The position numbers were made by a program, and so were the translations under genes. Shown here one piece after another: positions 1,747 to 9,213 of a stretch of DNA of 16,178 nucleotides. Positions within the stretch are counted from its first letter, which is position 1, and each line of letters starts with the position of its first letter. The DNA comes from an uncultured Prevotella sp. (GTDB lineage Bacteria > Bacteroidota > Bacteroidia > Bacteroidales > Bacteroidaceae), in the NCBI GenBank assembly GCA_900557255.1, contig USSA01000057.1:1-16178 (forward strand), in the 5' to 3' direction. The notes under the pieces are model-generated. The model saw only the letters and a list, made by a program, of their open reading frames with translations, was not told the origin of the DNA and searched no databases.

Positions 1747-1869
1747 TTAAGAGAAGTTAAAGAAATCTAGCCGTTCATGTTGGAGAATGCGAGACGTGAT
1801 GGTCGTCTTTCCGGAACCATTTGGACCGGCAATGACTATCAAAACGGGTTTATGCATGTTGTCTGTCAT
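1747..1869 (-). pseudogene. 5' fragment of a zeta-like P-loop kinase toxin gene
   Basis: The 40-residue frame starts MTDNMHKPVLIVIAGPNGSG and closely matches residues 1-34 of the intact kinase at 4315-4923, including the whole Walker A motif GPNGSGKT. After ...HERLD the match stops and the frame ends at a TAA (1747-1749) within six codons, so roughly the last 170 residues are missing. The fragment keeps the P-loop but lacks every substrate-binding element, so it cannot be an active kinase. Its start overlaps the reconstructed end of the interrupted partner gene (TAA at 1850-1852), as expected of a coupled module. A second in-frame ATG at 1857-1855 would give a start like that of the intact copy (MHKPVL versus IHKPVL). 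Confidence 0.85.
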
Positions 1870-1910
1870 ATTGAGTTTGATATTTGGTTGCAGCTTCATT
1901 GGAGGCTTCT

Positions 1911-1947
1911 GTAACTACTCAGCACCCCTATGGGCATGAGTAGTTAC
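1911..1947. repeat. Downstream end of the Rpn element: 11-bp perfect hairpin
   Basis: GTAACTACTCA (1911-1921) and TGAGTAGTTAC (1937-1947) are perfect inverted arms around a 15-base loop. The hairpin lies about 80 bases beyond the rpn stop. On the minus strand no T-run follows it, so it is a poor intrinsic terminator; a REP-like transposition end is more likely. Confidence 0.75.
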
Positions 1948-2029
1948 CTATCTTCTTTTTCCCACGTCTTTCTCCTTTTTTTTCACGGCTTTTCACAGTT
2001 TTTTCTCTATTCTGCCTGAGAGAATGGTT

Positions 2030-2917
2030 TTAAGCTTTCTTCAGGCGTTCTATTTTTTCTGGCGATAAACCTGTGGCTTGTATTATTTGAGCGATAGGAA
2101 CCCCTAAGGTCAGAAGATTTCTTGCGATTTCCTGGCTCTTGCTTAATTCGCCTTCAGCTCTTCCTTTTTCCATTCCTTTTTCCATTCCTTTTTCCATTCC
2201 TTTCTGATATCTGTCATCCAGGAGGGTTCTTTCAACACTTACTGAATCCCAGAATTTATTATAGGCACGGAGCTCTGCATCTGTAAAGCCGGAAACTTCA
2301 AGATCTTCTACGGCTTTTCCAATCTCCGGATCATTAAGCAGGTCGGCAGGAATCTCCTTTGTATTGGAATTGATTTCTGTAAGGAAACGCAGCCACAAGA
2401 CCATCATGCGCTTGTCTGCAATGGAATGAGGTGTGAACTTAGGGAGTTCTATGAAGGTGAAATGCAAGCCCTCGATGATCTTATTGCTGTCCTTGTCGTG
2501 CACGATGCGGTAGTTGTGGATGAAATCTGGAGTATCATGCGCAAAGATTTCATTCACAAGATTCAGGGAATATACTGGTTGGAGTTCGCTGTATTTTCCT
2601 CCTTTTTTAGCCTGACTCACATAGAGCTTGGATGCATTGAACAATACTCGCTGCTGGAATGCGTCTGACCATTCCATCTGCATTTCCACGCAGAATTTCC
2701 TGCCTCTAATGTCGGTGCAGAGTACATCTACTATGGTATTCTTGCCTCCTTCGAGCTGAGGCACAAGTTCTGTTGGCAGATACTCTATCTCGTGTATCTG
2801 CTCTTCTTCGCTGAGTGGCAGGAGGGCGTTCAGGAGGCTGATCAGTCTTGCGGGATGATTGCCGAATATCTTCTTGAACGTGAGGTCTGCCTTTGGATCT
2901 AAGTACTTCATAACCAT
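2030..2917 (-). CDS. Rpn family PD-(D/E)XK nuclease/putative transposase, full length
   Basis: This 295-residue protein belongs to the Rpn/PDDEXK_2 family, which promotes DNA recombination through a metal-dependent nuclease fold. The typical opening KYLDPKADLTFKKIFG is at residues 4-19. D64 in IVDVLCTD and E78-x-Q80 in CVEMQM fit the catalytic D...ExQ pattern, so it appears active. The C-terminal part has a charged repeat with three consecutive MEKG-type units (DNA repeat of 12 bases near 2170-2203), then a helix-turn-helix-like tail SQEIARNLLTLGVPIAQIIQ. The start at 2917 is followed by a second in-frame ATG at 2911 (MKYLDP), which may be the real one. It is the only gene in the element 1911-3036 and has its own promoter. 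Confidence 0.9.
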   Translation of the reverse strand: MVMKYLDPKADLTFKKIFGNHPARLISLLNALLPLSEEEQIHEIEYLPTELVPQLEGGKNTIVDVLCTDIRGRKFCVEMQMEWSDAFQQRVLFNASKLYVSQAKKGGKYSELQPVYSLNLVNEIFAHDTPDFIHNYRIVHDKDSNKIIEGLHFTFIELPKFTPHSIADKRMMVLWLRFLTEINSNTKEIPADLLNDPEIGKAVEDLEVSGFTDAELRAYNKFWDSVSVERTLLDDRYQKGMEKGMEKGMEKGRAEGELSKSQEIARNLLTLGVPIAQIIQATGLSPEKIERLKKA

Positions 2918-2937
2918 TCTGTTTAAAAACGATACCG

Positions 2938-2969
2938 CAAAGTTACGACTTTATTTCCAAACATGCAAG
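2938..2969 (-). promoter_or_regulatory. Promoter of the Rpn-type gene, inside the element
   Basis: On the minus strand a perfect -7 box TAACTTTG (2945-2938) lies 20 bases downstream of CTTG (2969-2966), a weak match to TTTG. It is about 20 bases upstream of the ATG and lies within the element, so the rpn gene carries its own promoter wherever it inserts. Confidence 0.6.
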
Positions 2970-3193
2970 CTTTTTCTGTGATTTTTTATAAGAATGAAGT
3001 TGGAATAGGCCATGCCGGAGGGTACTGAGTAGTTACAAGCTTCTTTAATCATGTCAATAACTCTTTTTTGAGCGTCTTCATTTTCTTTTCGATATAAGAC
3101 AGCTGCCTCATGCATAATCTGAGCCAGCATTTCGTCTGTTGGCTCTTCCATGCTTGTCAAGCGATAGCTATTTAGTTCTTTTTCTGAAATCAT
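2951..3193 (-). pseudogene. Small partner (putative antitoxin) of the broken kinase module, interrupted by the Rpn element
   Basis: Residues 1-31 (MISEKELNSYRLTSMEEPTD through MHEAA) are identical to the 63-residue partner of the intact kinase at 4923-5114. From codon 53 the frame runs into the inserted element, so the last 28 residues (from C53) are element-encoded, and the frame stops at 2951-2953. Excision of the element in silico gives a 69-residue protein ending ...KEASNEAATKYQTQYDRQHA and overlapping the toxin fragment start. It may still be translated as an 80-residue chimera with an intact N-terminus. Its leader (TTTTAAAGA-like sequence before the ATG) resembles those of the other two modules, but its promoter box is degenerate and it sits only 60 bases after the PIN gene. 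Confidence 0.75.
3010..3036. repeat. Upstream end of the Rpn element: single, non-palindromic copy of the end repeat
   Basis: Read on the minus strand it begins GTAACTACTCAGTACCC and continues to GGCATG, matching the other end over about 26 bases with small gaps. The second hairpin arm present at the other end is absent here, so the two ends are asymmetric. It is read through by the interrupted partner gene, encoding its residues from C53 on. Confidence 0.65.
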
Positions 3194-3253
3194 AATTTTT
3201 ATCTTTTAAAGTCTGCTGCAAATAGACTGCTTGCTTTAGGTTTTTGGAAGTAG

Positions 3254-3682: not shown

Positions 3683-3949
3683 TTATTTTATGTAGTCCTT
3701 GTAGTATTCGTTTTTGTAGTCGAATGACTCTGGCGAGTTGATGCCTTTAGTCATGGCTGCAATTCTTGGGTCTATAACTAAGTCTGCCTTGGTTATTTTC
3801 TTAGTCTTTGTCTTGTTGGGAGACACAGCCTTGTTAGGAGACAGTATGTTCTTCAGTGCTTTGACTGCCTTGCTTATTGTCTCGTAATCCTCGTTGGCAA
3901 TTATGTTGACGAGTGATTGATATTCTGTTTGTAACTCTAATGTTGTCAT
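3683..3949 (-). CDS. Putative antitoxin of the PIN-domain toxin
   Basis: The protein has 88 residues. The N-terminal part (about 1-36) is predicted helical (LELQTEYQSLVNIIANEDYE...), and it is followed by a basic, repeat-like linker with two copies of SPNK (residues 37-46) and KTKTKKITK. The C-terminal tail has many acidic and aromatic residues (SFDYKNEYYKDYIK), as in antitoxins whose tail wraps a PIN active site. I do not see a clear ribbon-helix-helix or AbrB DNA-binding domain. The gene begins 25-30 bases after a strong promoter and its stop is six bases before the PIN start, so the two form an operon. The assignment rests mainly on this arrangement. Confidence 0.75.
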   Translation of the reverse strand: MTTLELQTEYQSLVNIIANEDYETISKAVKALKNILSPNKAVSPNKTKTKKITKADLVIDPRIAAMTKGINSPESFDYKNEYYKDYIK

Positions 3950-3972
3950 AATTCTAATCTTTTAAAACCTTT

Positions 3973-4139
3973 TGCAAAGATACGCTGAATTTTTGTAACT
4001 TCCAAATTTTTAGGATGTTTTTTGCATTGAGGAACTGAGAAAAATCATTCTGTAGAAACGTCTTGTAGAATTTGCGCCTTTTCCTTGAATACCTTCATGT
4101 TATGGCGTGTTGTTTGCTTTAAAATGGAGTGAGGCTTAC
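3973..4139. repeat. Duplicated promoter region, copy 1 (167 bp)
   Basis: This segment matches 5648-5814 with the same length and only scattered substitutions. Shared blocks include GCAAAGATACGCTGAA, TTGTAACTTCCAAATTTT, TGCCTTTTCCTTGAATACCT (one variable base) and GGAGTGAGGCTTAC. The downstream genes differ completely (PIN pair here, kinase module beyond the other copy). A regulatory cassette was therefore duplicated or exchanged as a unit. Confidence 0.85.
3975..4006 (-). promoter_or_regulatory. Promoter of the PIN toxin-antitoxin operon
   Basis: On the minus strand TTTG (4006-4003), 20 bases, then TATCTTTG (3982-3975) make a full Bacteroidota sigma-type promoter. About 25 bases later comes the leader TTTTAAAAGATTAGAATT before the ATG at 3949; this leader is shared with the other modules of the island. 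Confidence 0.75.
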
Positions 4140-4280
4140 GTAAATGTTAACTGAGGCTCACTTGAAGTTGAAGTAAGGCTTACTTGAAATGGATGTGTTG
4201 ATTATCTGAACTCGAAGTGAGGCTTACTTCAATAGCTAACGAATACTATTTCAGTGACTAACGAGTACTATTTCAGTGAC
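4128..4280. repeat. Degenerate GAGGCTTAC repeats and 22-bp tandem repeats upstream of the PIN operon
   Basis: Copies of a sequence like AAGTGAGGCTTACTT begin near 4128, 4150, 4171 and 4215. They are followed by about 2.5 units of a 22-bp repeat (4227-4248, 4249-4270, partial from 4271) whose core is CAGTGACTAACGA. Compared with the second copy of the region, the segment at about 4140-4226 is an insertion. The rest of 4281-4314 shows nothing recognisable. Confidence 0.65.
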
Positions 4281-4314: not shown

Positions 4315-4923
4315 CTATTCTTCTTTGTTGGCAATGCCTATAGCCCATTCCGGAATCTCCTTCACGTATTCCTTAAATATTTTACCTTCTGTCATTCTGA
4401 AAAGAAGTTGAGCTTCTACACCGTCTTTTGAGTTGTCATATACGTATGTGCGGTCGGCGTATTGGGATGCTATTTCGCAATTGATGATGGATTTGGCATA
4501 TCTTGAAATAATCTTTGTAATCGGTACATCGTGTCCACCTTTCATTACTCTTGTAGCAATTCTTGAAGCATTTATTGTTGGCGAGGAAGTTCCTACAAAA
4601 AAGAGACGAATAAAAAATCCTGCTTCTTTAGCTCTTTTGATAAAGTCAATTTTCTCGGCAGTGGACATTACTGTTTCGAAAATCATACTATGTTTATTGT
4701 TGAGGCATTCTTCTCTTTGAGCCTGGCAGTATTGGGCTGCTTTTAATACTGCATCTTGATTGTTCCAATCGCCAAACATATTTTGTGCAATATTGTCTGG
4801 GTTGATATAAATAGAATCTTCTAGCCATTCGTGGTGTAATACACGACTGGTTATTGTTGTCTTCCCAGAACCATTAGGTCCTGCAATGACAATTAAAACG
4901 GGTTTGTGTATTTTTGCCTCCAT
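4315..4923 (-). CDS. Zeta-toxin-like P-loop kinase, intact
   Basis: This 202-residue protein begins with a beta strand and Walker A GPNGSGKT (residues 15-22). It then has INPDNIA (40-46), FETVMS (82-87), RIATRVMKGGHDVP (121-134) and ISRY (139-142), the order seen in the zeta toxin/UNG-kinase-like family. Zeta toxins phosphorylate UDP-N-acetylglucosamine or related small molecules; members of this short chromosomal type have not all been shown to be toxic, so the substrate is open. The start is chosen because the upstream gene's TAA overlaps this ATG by one base (TAATG), a translational-coupling signature. The broken copy at 1747-1869 starts at the same place, which supports the choice. Length suggests an intact enzyme. 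Confidence 0.88.
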   Translation of the reverse strand: MEAKIHKPVLIVIAGPNGSGKTTITSRVLHHEWLEDSIYINPDNIAQNMFGDWNNQDAVLKAAQYCQAQREECLNNKHSMIFETVMSTAEKIDFIKRAKEAGFFIRLFFVGTSSPTINASRIATRVMKGGHDVPITKIISRYAKSIINCEIASQYADRTYVYDNSKDGVEAQLLFRMTEGKIFKEYVKEIPEWAIGIANKEE

Positions 4924-5114
4924 TAATTCAAATTGAATTTTTGTCGTTGTTCTTTAGCCTGTTTTTGCATATTGGCAAAATAACTTCTGTAAGCTTCTTC
5001 GTTTTCTCTGTTGTATATTTCGGCAGCCTCATGCATAATCTGAGCCAGCATTTCATCTGTTGGCTCTTCCATGCTTGTCAGCCGATAGCTATTTAATTCT
5101 TTTTCTGAAATCAT
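4923..5114 (-). CDS. Small partner (putative antitoxin) of the zeta-like kinase
   Basis: The protein has 63 residues and no named domain that I recognise. It is highly charged, with an N-terminal MISEKELNSYRLTSMEEPTD, a helix DEMLAQIMHEAAEIYNRENE and a basic, glutamine-rich tail. It overlaps the kinase start by one base, and its paralogue stands before the other kinase copy, so the two genes have been duplicated together; that is the main reason to call it the cognate antitoxin. It does not resemble the epsilon antitoxin in length, so neutralisation might differ. Its leader (CTTTAAAAGATTAGAATT before the ATG) is shared with the PIN operon, but the matching promoter now lies about 500 bases away, beyond an rpn remnant. 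Confidence 0.78.
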   Translation of the reverse strand: MISEKELNSYRLTSMEEPTDEMLAQIMHEAAEIYNRENEEAYRSYFANMQKQAKEQRQKFNLN

Positions 5115-5150
5115 AATTCTAATCTTTTAAAGCCTGTTGCAAATTTTCCG

Positions 5151-5279
5151 TTACTGAATTTTCGCAAGTTGGCTCCACTCGCCCTGAAAGGGCTGAAGCT
5201 CCTAGCCCAGGGCGCTGCCCTGGGCTAGGAGCTTTTGGGCCTTCAGCCCGTACTTGAACCACATGCGAAAGTTCAGTAA
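5151..5279. repeat. 129-bp palindromic (MITE/REP-like) element
   Basis: The outer arms TTACTGAATTTTCGCA (5151-5166) and TGCGAAAGTTCAGTAA (5264-5279) pair at 15 of 16 positions. The centre is a perfect 18-bp stem, 5196-5213 with 5217-5234, around the triloop GCT; its core is CTAGCCCAGGGC. Flanking CCCTGAAAGGGCTGAAG and GGGCCTTCAGCCCG add further pairing. It begins six bases after the stop of the rpn remnant and lies in the leader of the kinase module, where a transcript would fold strongly. GC-rich palindromes of this style are common in Prevotella and Bacteroides intergenic DNA. Confidence 0.8.
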
Positions 5280-5284
5280 GTAAT

Positions 5285-5554
5285 CTATATTTCTGCTTTT
5301 AGCTGCAGTATATGTTCCGCCGACAGCCCGGTTATTTCCTTTACCGTCGCTTCATCTATGCCCTTTGCCAGCATCTTTCTGGCAATCTCAAGACTTCTTT
5401 CTTCCTTGCCTTCGGCTATACCTTCACGCTTGGCGGTGTCTACGGAATTCTTGATGTCGCGATATGCCATCTTGCTGGTTTCGTACTCCCTCATTTCCTG
5501 CGGAGTGAACTTGGCTATCTCGGCTTTGATGTATCTTTCTTCTGCCTGTTTCAT
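5285..5554 (-). pseudogene. C-terminal remnant of an Rpn-type gene
   Basis: The 89-codon frame matches the C-terminal third of Rpn-type proteins: AEIAKFTPQEMREYETSKMA, then a KREGIAEGKEE charged repeat and the tail EIARKMLAKGIDEATVKEIT. This has the same layout as residues 220-295 of the full-length gene at 2030-2917, although the sequences are diverged. The nuclease domain (D and ExQ) is missing, and a TGA closes the frame about 14 codons upstream of the ATG. It could still give a small DNA-binding-like peptide, but a decayed gene is more likely. It separates the upstream promoter from the kinase module. Confidence 0.75.
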
Positions 5555-7932: not shown

Positions 7933-9213
7933 TTAGTATGCAAAGAGAGGGTAATCCTTCATTGTAGCATTCACCTTTTCGCGAACGCGGGCAATGACCT
8001 TCTCGTCCTCTGGAGCATTCAGTACCTCCTCGATGAGTTCAGCAATGAGGTGCATCATATCTTCCTTGGCGCCACGTGTGGTCATGGCTGCTGTACCCAG
8101 GCGGATACCTGATGTCTGGAAGGCAGAGCGGCTGTCGAATGGAACCATGTTCTTGTTGACTGTGATGTCGGCTGCAACCAGCGCATTCTCAGCGACTTTA
8201 CCTGTGAGATCTGGATATTTACTTCGGAGGTCTACGAGCATAGAATGGTTGTCTGTACCACCGCTCACGATACCGAATCCGCGACCGATGAGGTCATCTG
8301 CGAGTACGGCTGCATTCTTCTTTACCTGAGTAGCATACTCCTTCCATGAAGGCTGCAGATTCTCATTGAAGGCTACTGCCTTGGCAGCGATGACGTGCTC
8401 CAGCGGACCACCCTGCTGACCTGGGAATACGGCAGAATTCAAGAGCATGCTCATTTTCTTAACCTCGCCCTTCTTGGTTGTCAAACCCCATGGATTGTCA
8501 AAATCTTTGCCCATCAGAATGATACCGCCACGAGGACCACGGAGTGTCTTGTGAGTAGTAGAAGTAACGATGTGTGCATACTTCAATGGGTTGTCGAGCA
8601 GACCGGCTGCAATCAGACCTGCAGGGTGAGCCATATCGATCATGAGGAGAGCGCCTACCTCATCGGCAATCTTGCGCATGCGGGCATAATCCCACTCGCG
8701 GCTGTAAGCGCTACCACCACCGATAATCAGTTTTGGTTTGTGTTCAAGAGCCAGTTTCTCCATCTCGTCGTAGTCTACACGGCCTGTCTCCTTGTTCAGG
8801 TTGTAACCGATAGGGTTGTAGAGAATACCGGATGTATTGACGTGGCTACCATGAGAGAGGTGGCCGCCGTGGTCGAGGTTCAAGCCCATGAAGGTATCGC
8901 CTGGCTTCAATACGGCAAGCAGAACAGCAGCGTTAGCCTGAGCACCAGAGTGAGGCTGTACGTTGGCATACTCAGCACCGAACACCTTCTTTACACGCTC
9001 GATGGCGAGGTTCTCTACGATGTCAACTACCTGGCATCCGCCATAATAGCGCTTGCCTGGCAGACCCTCGGCATACTTGTTAGTAAGGTAAGAACCCATA
9101 GCGTTCATCACCTCGTCACTCACGAAATTCTCAGAAGCGATAAGCTCCATACCTTTCAGCTGGCGCTGATGTTCTCTTTCGATTAAGTCGAAAATCTCTT
9201 GATCTTTTACCAT
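7933..9213 (-). CDS. glyA: Serine hydroxymethyltransferase
   Basis: GlyA converts serine and tetrahydrofolate to glycine and 5,10-methylene-tetrahydrofolate in the cytosol, feeding one-carbon metabolism for purines, thymidylate and methionine. The protein has 426 residues, the usual length, with no gap. Family motifs are present: [10 protein letters not shown] (23-32), the glycine-rich KRYYGGCQ (54-61), [10 protein letters not shown] (85-94), and the PLP site [13 protein letters not shown] with K222 as the Schiff-base lysine. D193 and H196 in [10 protein letters not shown] contact the cofactor. The ATG at 9213 follows a purine-rich AAAGGGAA. It has its own promoter and terminator and is monocistronic. 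Confidence 0.98.

What the first reader, a model, noticed from the sequence alone, without database searches (positions are those of the whole stretch)
1903..3044. Rpn-type gene packaged as an IS-like element with inverted ends, inserted in a toxin-antitoxin partner gene; in-silico excision restores the frame
Seen: GTAACTACTCAG at 1911 and its exact inverted copy ending at 3036 bound a 1126-bp segment with one gene. Flanks AGGCTTCT/AAGCTTCT look like an 8-bp target duplication with one change. Collapsing the flank copies joins codon 52 of the interrupted partner to TCC AAT GAA GCT... in phase, with a stop at 1850 overlapping the toxin start. Known: Rpn proteins are recombination-promoting nucleases annotated as putative transposases, and I know of no defined termini for them. 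Inferred: this may show the boundaries of a mobile Rpn unit.
Basis: partly seen in the sequence, partly recalled or inferred. Interest (0 to 1): 0.85.

Follow-up and report, generated by a model that had tools for sequence, protein, structure and literature searches.

The report
Nuclease gene inside borrowed IS66 ends
A stand-alone nuclease gene that is often mislabelled a transposase sits between the ends of a different, well-known jumping element (IS66), inserted into a small gene, so it looks like a passenger rather than the engine of the jump.

Summary
In detail: window 1911-3036 (1126 bp) has perfect 12-bp inverted ends, flanks alike at 7/8, one rpn gene, and splits the partner gene of a degenerate zeta-type toxin locus. 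The interpretation needs changing: the ends are not Rpn's. In related genomes GTAACTACTCAGYACC bounds 1.78-1.86-kb insertion sequences with one IS66 transposase (TnpC) and 143-217-bp MITEs, mostly with 8-bp target duplications. ISDge4 (ISBst12 group of IS66) is published with ends one base different and an 8-bp repeat. Of 19 two-ended elements found by a rule that requires the duplication, 7 carry tnpC, 11 are MITEs, 1 (the window) carries rpn. Of 241 distinct rpn places (208 with 400 bp on both sides), only the window has such ends. Best reading: a non-autonomous IS66-type cassette with rpn as passenger, moved in trans by TnpC; a concrete case of the hitchhiking proposed for rpn genes. Limits: one copy; a mismatch in the duplication; the left end also exists as solitary palindromes without duplications; the window's own genome is not held.

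The parts
1903..1910 (.). left copy of the presumed 8-bp target duplication (AGGCTTCT)
   Evidence: 7/8 match to 3037-3044; P 0.00079 for random local 8-mers
1911..1947 (+). left end: 12-bp terminal inverted repeat plus inner inverted copy, a 37-nt palindrome like the tnpC-distal (3') end of IS66 elements
   Evidence: 33/37 to the 3' end of the IS66 element in L088; fold z -5.2
2030..2917 (-). rpn gene, 295 aa, PD-(D/E)XK nuclease family with RpnS-like C-terminus (passenger gene)
   Evidence: PF12784 5e-46; TIGR01784 2.7e-38; PDB 7th0 RpnA, residues 250-290, E 9.3e-5
2161..2203 (-). three copies, 12 bp apart, of a 19-bp unit coding four-residue repeats (KGME) before the C-terminal domain
   Evidence: direct repeat D5
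2938..2968 (-). promoter-like TTGC-N19-TAACTTTG upstream of rpn, within the DNA stretch shared with other rpn copies (to 2981)
   Evidence: pattern match; shared stretch 2150-2981; the promoter consensus is recalled
3011..3036 (-). right end: 12-bp terminal inverted repeat and 14 further bases
   Evidence: 24/26 to the 3' end of the IS66 element in L249; other IS66 ends 16-20/26
3037..3044 (.). right copy of the presumed 8-bp target duplication (AAGCTTCT)
3038..3193 (-). codons 1-52 of the interrupted toxin partner gene
   Evidence: 82% DNA match of 3041-3223 to 4962-5144; protein match
1850..1903 (-). remainder of the interrupted partner frame up to its stop, overlapping the toxin start (placed by frame and position; little sequence likeness to the paralogue)
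   Evidence: left flank alone translated; alignment
1747..1857 (-). truncated zeta-type toxin fragment of the interrupted locus
   Evidence: PF06414 1.7e-4, just below cut-off; 75% DNA match of 1766-1860 to 4820-4914
4315..5114 (-). uninterrupted paralogous pair (partner 4923-5114, zeta-type toxin 4315-4923), the reference for the empty site
   Evidence: PF06414 1.1e-11; alignments

Best explanation
The segment 1911-3036 is a non-autonomous IS66-family (ISBst12-group) element, a mobile insertion cassette: IS66-type terminal repeats flank a promoter plus rpn, with no transposase. A TnpC supplied in trans from a full-length IS66 copy would recognise the ends and insert the cassette with an 8-bp duplication, here into the partner gene of a decaying zeta-type toxin locus. 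Rpn is cargo, probably a self-contained nuclease toxin with its own C-terminal inhibitor as reported for E. coli Rpn. Shown: end identity to IS66 elements and MITEs, 7/8 duplication, insertion inside a gene that is uninterrupted in the paralogue and in relatives, rpn content, no tnpC. Inferred: movement in trans, Rpn activity and selection for the cargo.
For: The first 12 bases of both ends equal those of elements of 1824, 1825 and 1839 bp in G001 and G026 with one 491-496-aa IS66 transposase (NF033517, E about 1e-68) and perfect 8-bp duplications. By a rule that requires an inverted mate and an 8-bp duplication with at most 1 mismatch, 28 of 113 distinct exact ends have a mate; these are 19 elements: 7 with tnpC (1777-1857 bp), 11 MITEs (143-217 bp), 1 with rpn. 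Not selected by duplication: of 18 pairs whose two ends together differ from the 12-mer by at most 1 base, 15 have a duplication with at most 1 mismatch (my count). The 16-base end pattern is in 59 of 398 genus genomes, the reversed control in 3. ISDge4 of the ISBst12 group has ends GTGACTACTCAGCA/GTAACTGCTCAGCA and an 8-bp repeat (PMC12898284, passages). Other rpn places lack such ends (240 of 241). Partner and toxin matches lie side by side, at most about 125 nt apart, in 17 of 27 loci fetched by the right flank.
Against: Only one copy of the cassette is known: no match in plasmids or phages; 1930-2150 matches in 0 of 398 genus genomes, an answer without a positive control. The duplication has one mismatch. 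The left end belongs to a class of 34-38-bp palindromes: 22 seen, none flanked by an 8-bp duplication of its own (3-8 mismatches), 14 of them with no tnpC within up to 2.3 kb, so an end can stand alone. Paired ends are not proof of a unit: L168 has two such palindromes 611 bp apart without duplication, and two tnpC-bearing pairs (L173, L174) also lack one. In one search the bare 11-mer was not commoner than its reversed control in most of the 10 genomes.
Confidence: 0.8

Rival explanations
1. The unit is a mobile Rpn element: these inverted ends are the defined termini that Rpn itself recognises and moves.
For: The cassette holds no other gene; Rpn proteins are named putative transposases.
Against: The same ends bound IS66 tnpC elements and MITEs without rpn; 240 of 241 distinct rpn places lack them; a preprint reports no inverted ends or target duplications at rpn genes and no evidence of autonomous transposition (PMC10327210, passages).
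Confidence: 0.04
2. Two solitary IS66-derived ends landed or survived on either side of an rpn gene; rpn came by ordinary recombination and the 7/8 flank match is chance, so 1911-3036 never moved as one unit.
For: Palindromic ends without tnpC and without duplications exist (14 of 22 palindromes); L168 shows two, 611 bp apart, with no duplication; the left end, and by one comparison the right end, look like the same (3') IS66 end.
Against: Chance of a 7/8 flank match is 0.00079. The extra length against the paralogue is 1133 bp (arithmetic) and the frame offset is a multiple of 3, as for one insertion. Relatives have partner and toxin side by side (17 of 27 loci).
Confidence: 0.12
3. It is a full IS66 element in which recombination replaced tnpC by rpn, still bearing one 5' and one 3' end, now a dead relic.
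For: Same kind of ends around a single gene; no tnpC left. Apart from one element, IS66 3' ends match the right end (16-19/26) no better than 5' ends do (17-20/26), so a 5' origin of the right end is not excluded.
Against: tblastn found no tnpC remnant in the segment; the best match of the right end is a 3' end (24/26, L249).
Confidence: 0.04

Closest known systems
ISBst12-group insertion sequences of the IS66 family (for example ISDge4)
   Same: Terminal repeats one base different at each end, 8-bp repeat, a single transposase gene in the autonomous forms (PMC12898284, passages; own elements)
   Different: The window element has rpn in place of tnpC
tIS66 elements with passenger genes (for example ISPa75 with fosZ)
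   Same: IS66-type ends carrying a passenger gene (PMC12888890, passages)
   Different: ISPa75 keeps its transposase genes; the passenger there is unrelated to rpn
Mobile insertion cassettes and MITEs
   Same: Non-autonomous elements moved by ISs, without transposase (PMC3281130, passages); that MICs carry passengers is recalled
   Different: No paper in the held library has both 'recombination-promoting nuclease' and IS66 (0 found)
Rpn (YhgA-like) recombination-promoting nucleases
   Same: TIGR01784/PF12784 protein, D64 and E78-x-Q80 (read by eye), four-residue repeats, RpnS-like C-terminus
   Different: Other rpn genes are reported without inverted ends or target duplications (PMC10327210, passages)

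Membership tests
IS66 family, ISBst12 group, non-autonomous derivative | terminal inverted repeats of the group, starting GTAA | tested here: met
   12/12 at both ends; beyond that 33/37 left (L088) and at best 24/26 right (L249) to tnpC-bearing copies
IS66 family, ISBst12 group, non-autonomous derivative | 8-bp target duplication | tested here: inconclusive
   7/8 in the window, P 0.00079 by chance
IS66 family, ISBst12 group, non-autonomous derivative | same ends on elements with a single TnpC | tested here: met
   7 of 19 two-ended elements; NF033517 above cut-off in the 3 of 7 that were scanned
IS66 family (autonomous) | own transposase gene inside the element | tested here: not met
   no tnpC match in 1911-3036
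Mobile insertion cassette (MIC) | IS ends around a passenger gene, no transposase | tested here: met
   structure
Mobile insertion cassette (MIC) | moved in trans by an IS transposase | not testable with these tools
   needs an experiment; own genome not held
Rpn family | PD-(D/E)XK domain of TIGR01784/PF12784 | tested here: met
   above both curated cut-offs
Rpn family | C-terminal RpnS-like domain with four-residue repeats | tested here: met
   7th0 RpnA match at 250-290, 12-bp repeats
Rpn family | internally translated inhibitor (RpnS) | not testable with these tools
   in-frame ATGs in the repeats seen only
Autonomous Rpn transposon | shared termini across rpn genes | tested here: not met
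   1 of 241 distinct rpn places

The most novel reading that the evidence does not exclude
IS66-type ends act as a general packaging system for a nuclease toxin-inhibitor gene: the cassette moves in trans with TnpC while Rpn, a PD-(D/E)XK nuclease like the TnsA subunit of Tn7, takes part in cutting or in keeping the insertion, making a two-protein split transposition or addiction unit.
Probability: 0.04. Interest if true: 0.85.

Novelty: new variant of a known kind. Interest (0 to 1): 0.42.

Why it matters
Rpn genes spread widely and are still named transposases, yet a preprint reports neither inverted ends nor target duplications at them and suggests hitchhiking (PMC10327210, passages). This locus is a candidate for that hitchhiking with base-level boundaries, and it makes a test possible: whether an IS66 TnpC can move an rpn cassette in trans. 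It also warns that an rpn between inverted repeats should not be read as proof that Rpn is the transposase.

Tried and rejected
Rpn termini. A first scan of 172 rpn places (140 distinct, 109 with at least 500 bp on both sides) and a second of 276 places (241 distinct, 208 with at least 400 bp on both sides) looked for these ends, or any GTA-type ends with an 8-bp duplication; only the window had them. The places come from best-hit and capped lists, not from a random sample. With 3 mismatches allowed and 1500 bp searched, 28 other distinct places had an end-like 12-mer, 27 on one side only and one, L336, on both sides (3 mismatches each) without a passing duplication; at 2 mismatches within 800 bp no place but the window had both sides. 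A looser generic scan gave 4 of 140 loci with inverted repeats and 4-6-bp duplications around rpn: L097 and L297 are longer inverted copies of intergenic repeats that run past the supposed ends; L304 and L346 I left unexplained as possible chance. Under the stricter generic rule, 0 of 241 remained.

Rpn paralogues in G001: shared stretches differ from pair to pair and I noticed no common terminal sequence; I did not analyse them further. The closest rpn relatives (G001, G067, G411 and named Segatella/Prevotella contigs, 83-91% protein identity) have no such ends on both sides; at DNA level G001, G067 and G411 share about 2150-2981 with the window (2171-2959 for G411). Protein search: capped at 8000, best identities 97% over 79% (P0120) and 93% over 82% (P0111, named Segatella hominis); no context given. 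Plasmid and phage collections: no match. Viral contigs: 1 weak rpn relative; 8 end-pattern matches that collapse to 4 distinct surroundings, none with a mate. Rfam: no family. PADLOC: best Rpn match E 0.0023, not convincing. A search with 1930-2150 found nothing in 398 genomes.

Ends not counted as elements: 85 of 113 had no mate under the rule. In one search, of 114 distinct ends, 42 have tnpC within 2.3 kb, 63 have neither tnpC nor rpn, 7 had too little sequence, and 2 are the window's.

Full report
WHAT IS THERE. The window carries a 1126-bp segment (1911-3036) with perfect 12-bp inverted ends; the pairing extends to 17 of 18 bases. Directly outside lie AGGCTTCT and AAGCTTCT, 7 of 8 alike; random 8-mers from local DNA reach that with probability 0.00079. 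Inside is one gene on the minus strand (2030-2917, 295 aa), an Rpn-family PD-(D/E)XK protein above the Pfam and NCBIfam cut-offs. Its C-terminus matches a solved RpnA fragment (7th0, residues 250-290, E 9.3e-5) and is preceded by four-residue repeats (12-bp DNA repeats at 2161-2203), as described for Rpn proteins (PMC10327210, passages). A promoter-like TTGC-N19-TAACTTTG stands at 2938-2968 (consensus recalled).

THE SITE. The segment splits a small gene that precedes a zeta-type toxin gene. An uninterrupted paralogous pair lies at 4315-5114 in the same window: 3041-3223 matches 4962-5144 at 82% and 1766-1860 matches 4820-4914 at 75%. The matched blocks are 47 bp apart in the paralogue and 1180 bp apart here, a difference of 1133. 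Among 27 loci fetched with the right flank (25 of 299 genomes matched), 17 have partner and toxin matches side by side, no more than about 125 nt apart, though several of the toxin copies match only in part; 2 show the partner only and 8 neither. The offset between the two sides is 1134 = 3 x 378, and the left flank alone is open in that phase to a stop at 1850-1852. This left piece is placed by frame and position; its sequence is hardly like the paralogue's. The toxin fragment of the interrupted locus is itself truncated (36 aa from the homologous start against 202 aa in the paralogue), so the insertion may have landed in, or helped to make, a decaying locus.

WHOSE ENDS ARE THEY. In the nearest held genome (G001) and in G026 the same 12 bases bound elements of 1824, 1825 and 1839 bp, each with one 491-496-aa IS66 transposase and each with a perfect 8-bp duplication. 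The bare 11-mer is not above its reversed control in most of the 10 genomes, but the 16-base pattern GTAACTACTCAGYACC occurs in 59 of 398 genus genomes (a draw from a larger group) against 3 for the reversed control. From the loci then in hand, 113 distinct exact ends gave 28 with a mate under a rule that requires an inverted partner and an 8-bp duplication with at most one mismatch. These are 19 elements: 7 with tnpC (1777-1857 bp), 11 MITEs of 143-217 bp, and the window element with rpn; 16 of the 19 duplications are perfect and three, including the window's, have one mismatch. Because the rule selects for duplications, an unselected figure is better: of 18 pairs whose two ends together differ from the 12-mer by at most one base, 15 have such a duplication; the three without are L168 and two tnpC-bearing pairs, L173 and L174 (my count). 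The other 85 ends had no mate. ISDge4, an ISBst12-group member of IS66 caught transposing in Deinococcus, has ends GTGACTACTCAGCA and GTAACTGCTCAGCA and an 8-bp repeat (PMC12898284, passages). The ends are therefore those of the ISBst12 group of IS66, not of Rpn.

DO OTHER RPN GENES HAVE THEM. Not in what I examined. Among 276 rpn places, 241 distinct, 208 of them with at least 400 bp on both sides, only the window has these ends (at most 2 mismatches, both sides within 800 bp) or any GTA-type ends with an 8-bp duplication. The places come from capped best-hit lists. With 3 mismatches and 1500 bp allowed, one other place (L336) has weak end-like 12-mers on both sides, without a passing duplication. 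The closest rpn relatives share the gene and its upstream region to 2981 but not the ends. [quoted passage not shown]

HOW IT PROBABLY WORKS. The unit is best read as a mobile insertion cassette: IS66-type ends with a passenger and no transposase, moved by TnpC made elsewhere. IS66 elements with passengers are known (ISPa75 with fosZ, PMC12888890, passages), but there the transposase is kept. MICs and MITEs as classes are known (PMC3281130, passages). One search for papers holding both 'recombination-promoting nuclease' and IS66 found 0, and one for 'miniature inverted-repeat', Prevotella and IS66 found 0; the library holds open-licence papers only. Shown here: the ends, the near-perfect duplication, the interrupted gene, the content. 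Inferred: mobilisation in trans and the cargo's activity.

WHAT SPEAKS AGAINST IT. There is one copy. The duplication has a mismatch. The left end looks like the tnpC-distal (3') end of IS66 (33/37 to L088); the right end matches one 3' end at 24/26 (L249), but the other six 3' ends at 16-19/26, no better than 5' ends at 17-20/26 (ungapped), so its origin is less sure. The left end belongs to a class of 34-38-bp palindromes: 22 were seen, window included, none with an 8-bp duplication of its own (3-8 mismatches); of the 21 others, 4 are attached to tnpC, 14 have no tnpC within up to 2.3 kb, 1 had too little sequence and 2 of another sequence type were not classified. One locus, L168, has two of these 611 bp apart and no duplication. 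So a chance pair around an rpn gene is a real rival, made unlikely by the flank match, the split gene and the extra length. The window's own genome is not held, so resident TnpC copies and further cassettes could not be looked for.

VERDICT. A real and well-bounded insertion; an ordinary IS family supplies the ends, and the unusual part is the cargo. It is a new variant of a known kind and a useful test case for how rpn genes travel.

Noticed in passing
window 5285-5554: C-terminal remnant of a second rpn gene, 73% identical over 91 residues to an rpn of G001 (L060); the open frame had no Pfam match.
   Followed up: partly
window 1911-1947; L094, L168, L205, L207, L216, L228, L264 and others: Palindromes of 34-38 bp (GTAACTACTCAG...TGAGTAGTTAC) without target duplications of their own: 22 listed, window included, 14 without tnpC nearby. 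They resemble the tnpC-distal end of IS66 elements; their origin is unexplained.
   Followed up: partly
L127/L169, L170, L203, L217, L221, L222, L234, L236, L247, L248, L256: MITEs of 143-217 bp with IS66-type ends and 8-bp duplications (10 of 11 perfect, under a rule that requires at most one mismatch).
   Followed up: partly
window 3190-3222, 3946-3978, 5111-5143: A 33-bp stretch repeated directly before three small genes: the two zeta-toxin partners and the gene before a PIN-domain gene (82% and 94% to the reference copy), as if these toxin loci share a leader.
   Followed up: no
window 5184-5246; L097: A REP-like palindrome (30-nt arms, 83% complementary) whose neighbouring core GCCCTTTCAGGGC (window 5181, minus strand) recurs around rpn copies in G001, including a tandem rpn pair in L097.
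   Followed up: partly
L297 3880-5165: An rpn relative in Segatella copri iAQ1173 flanked by inverted copies of an intergenic repeat that runs past the gene on both sides.
   Followed up: partly
window 4107-4268: Imperfect 22-bp repeats (GTGAGGCTTACTT type) between the PIN locus and the zeta locus.
   Followed up: no
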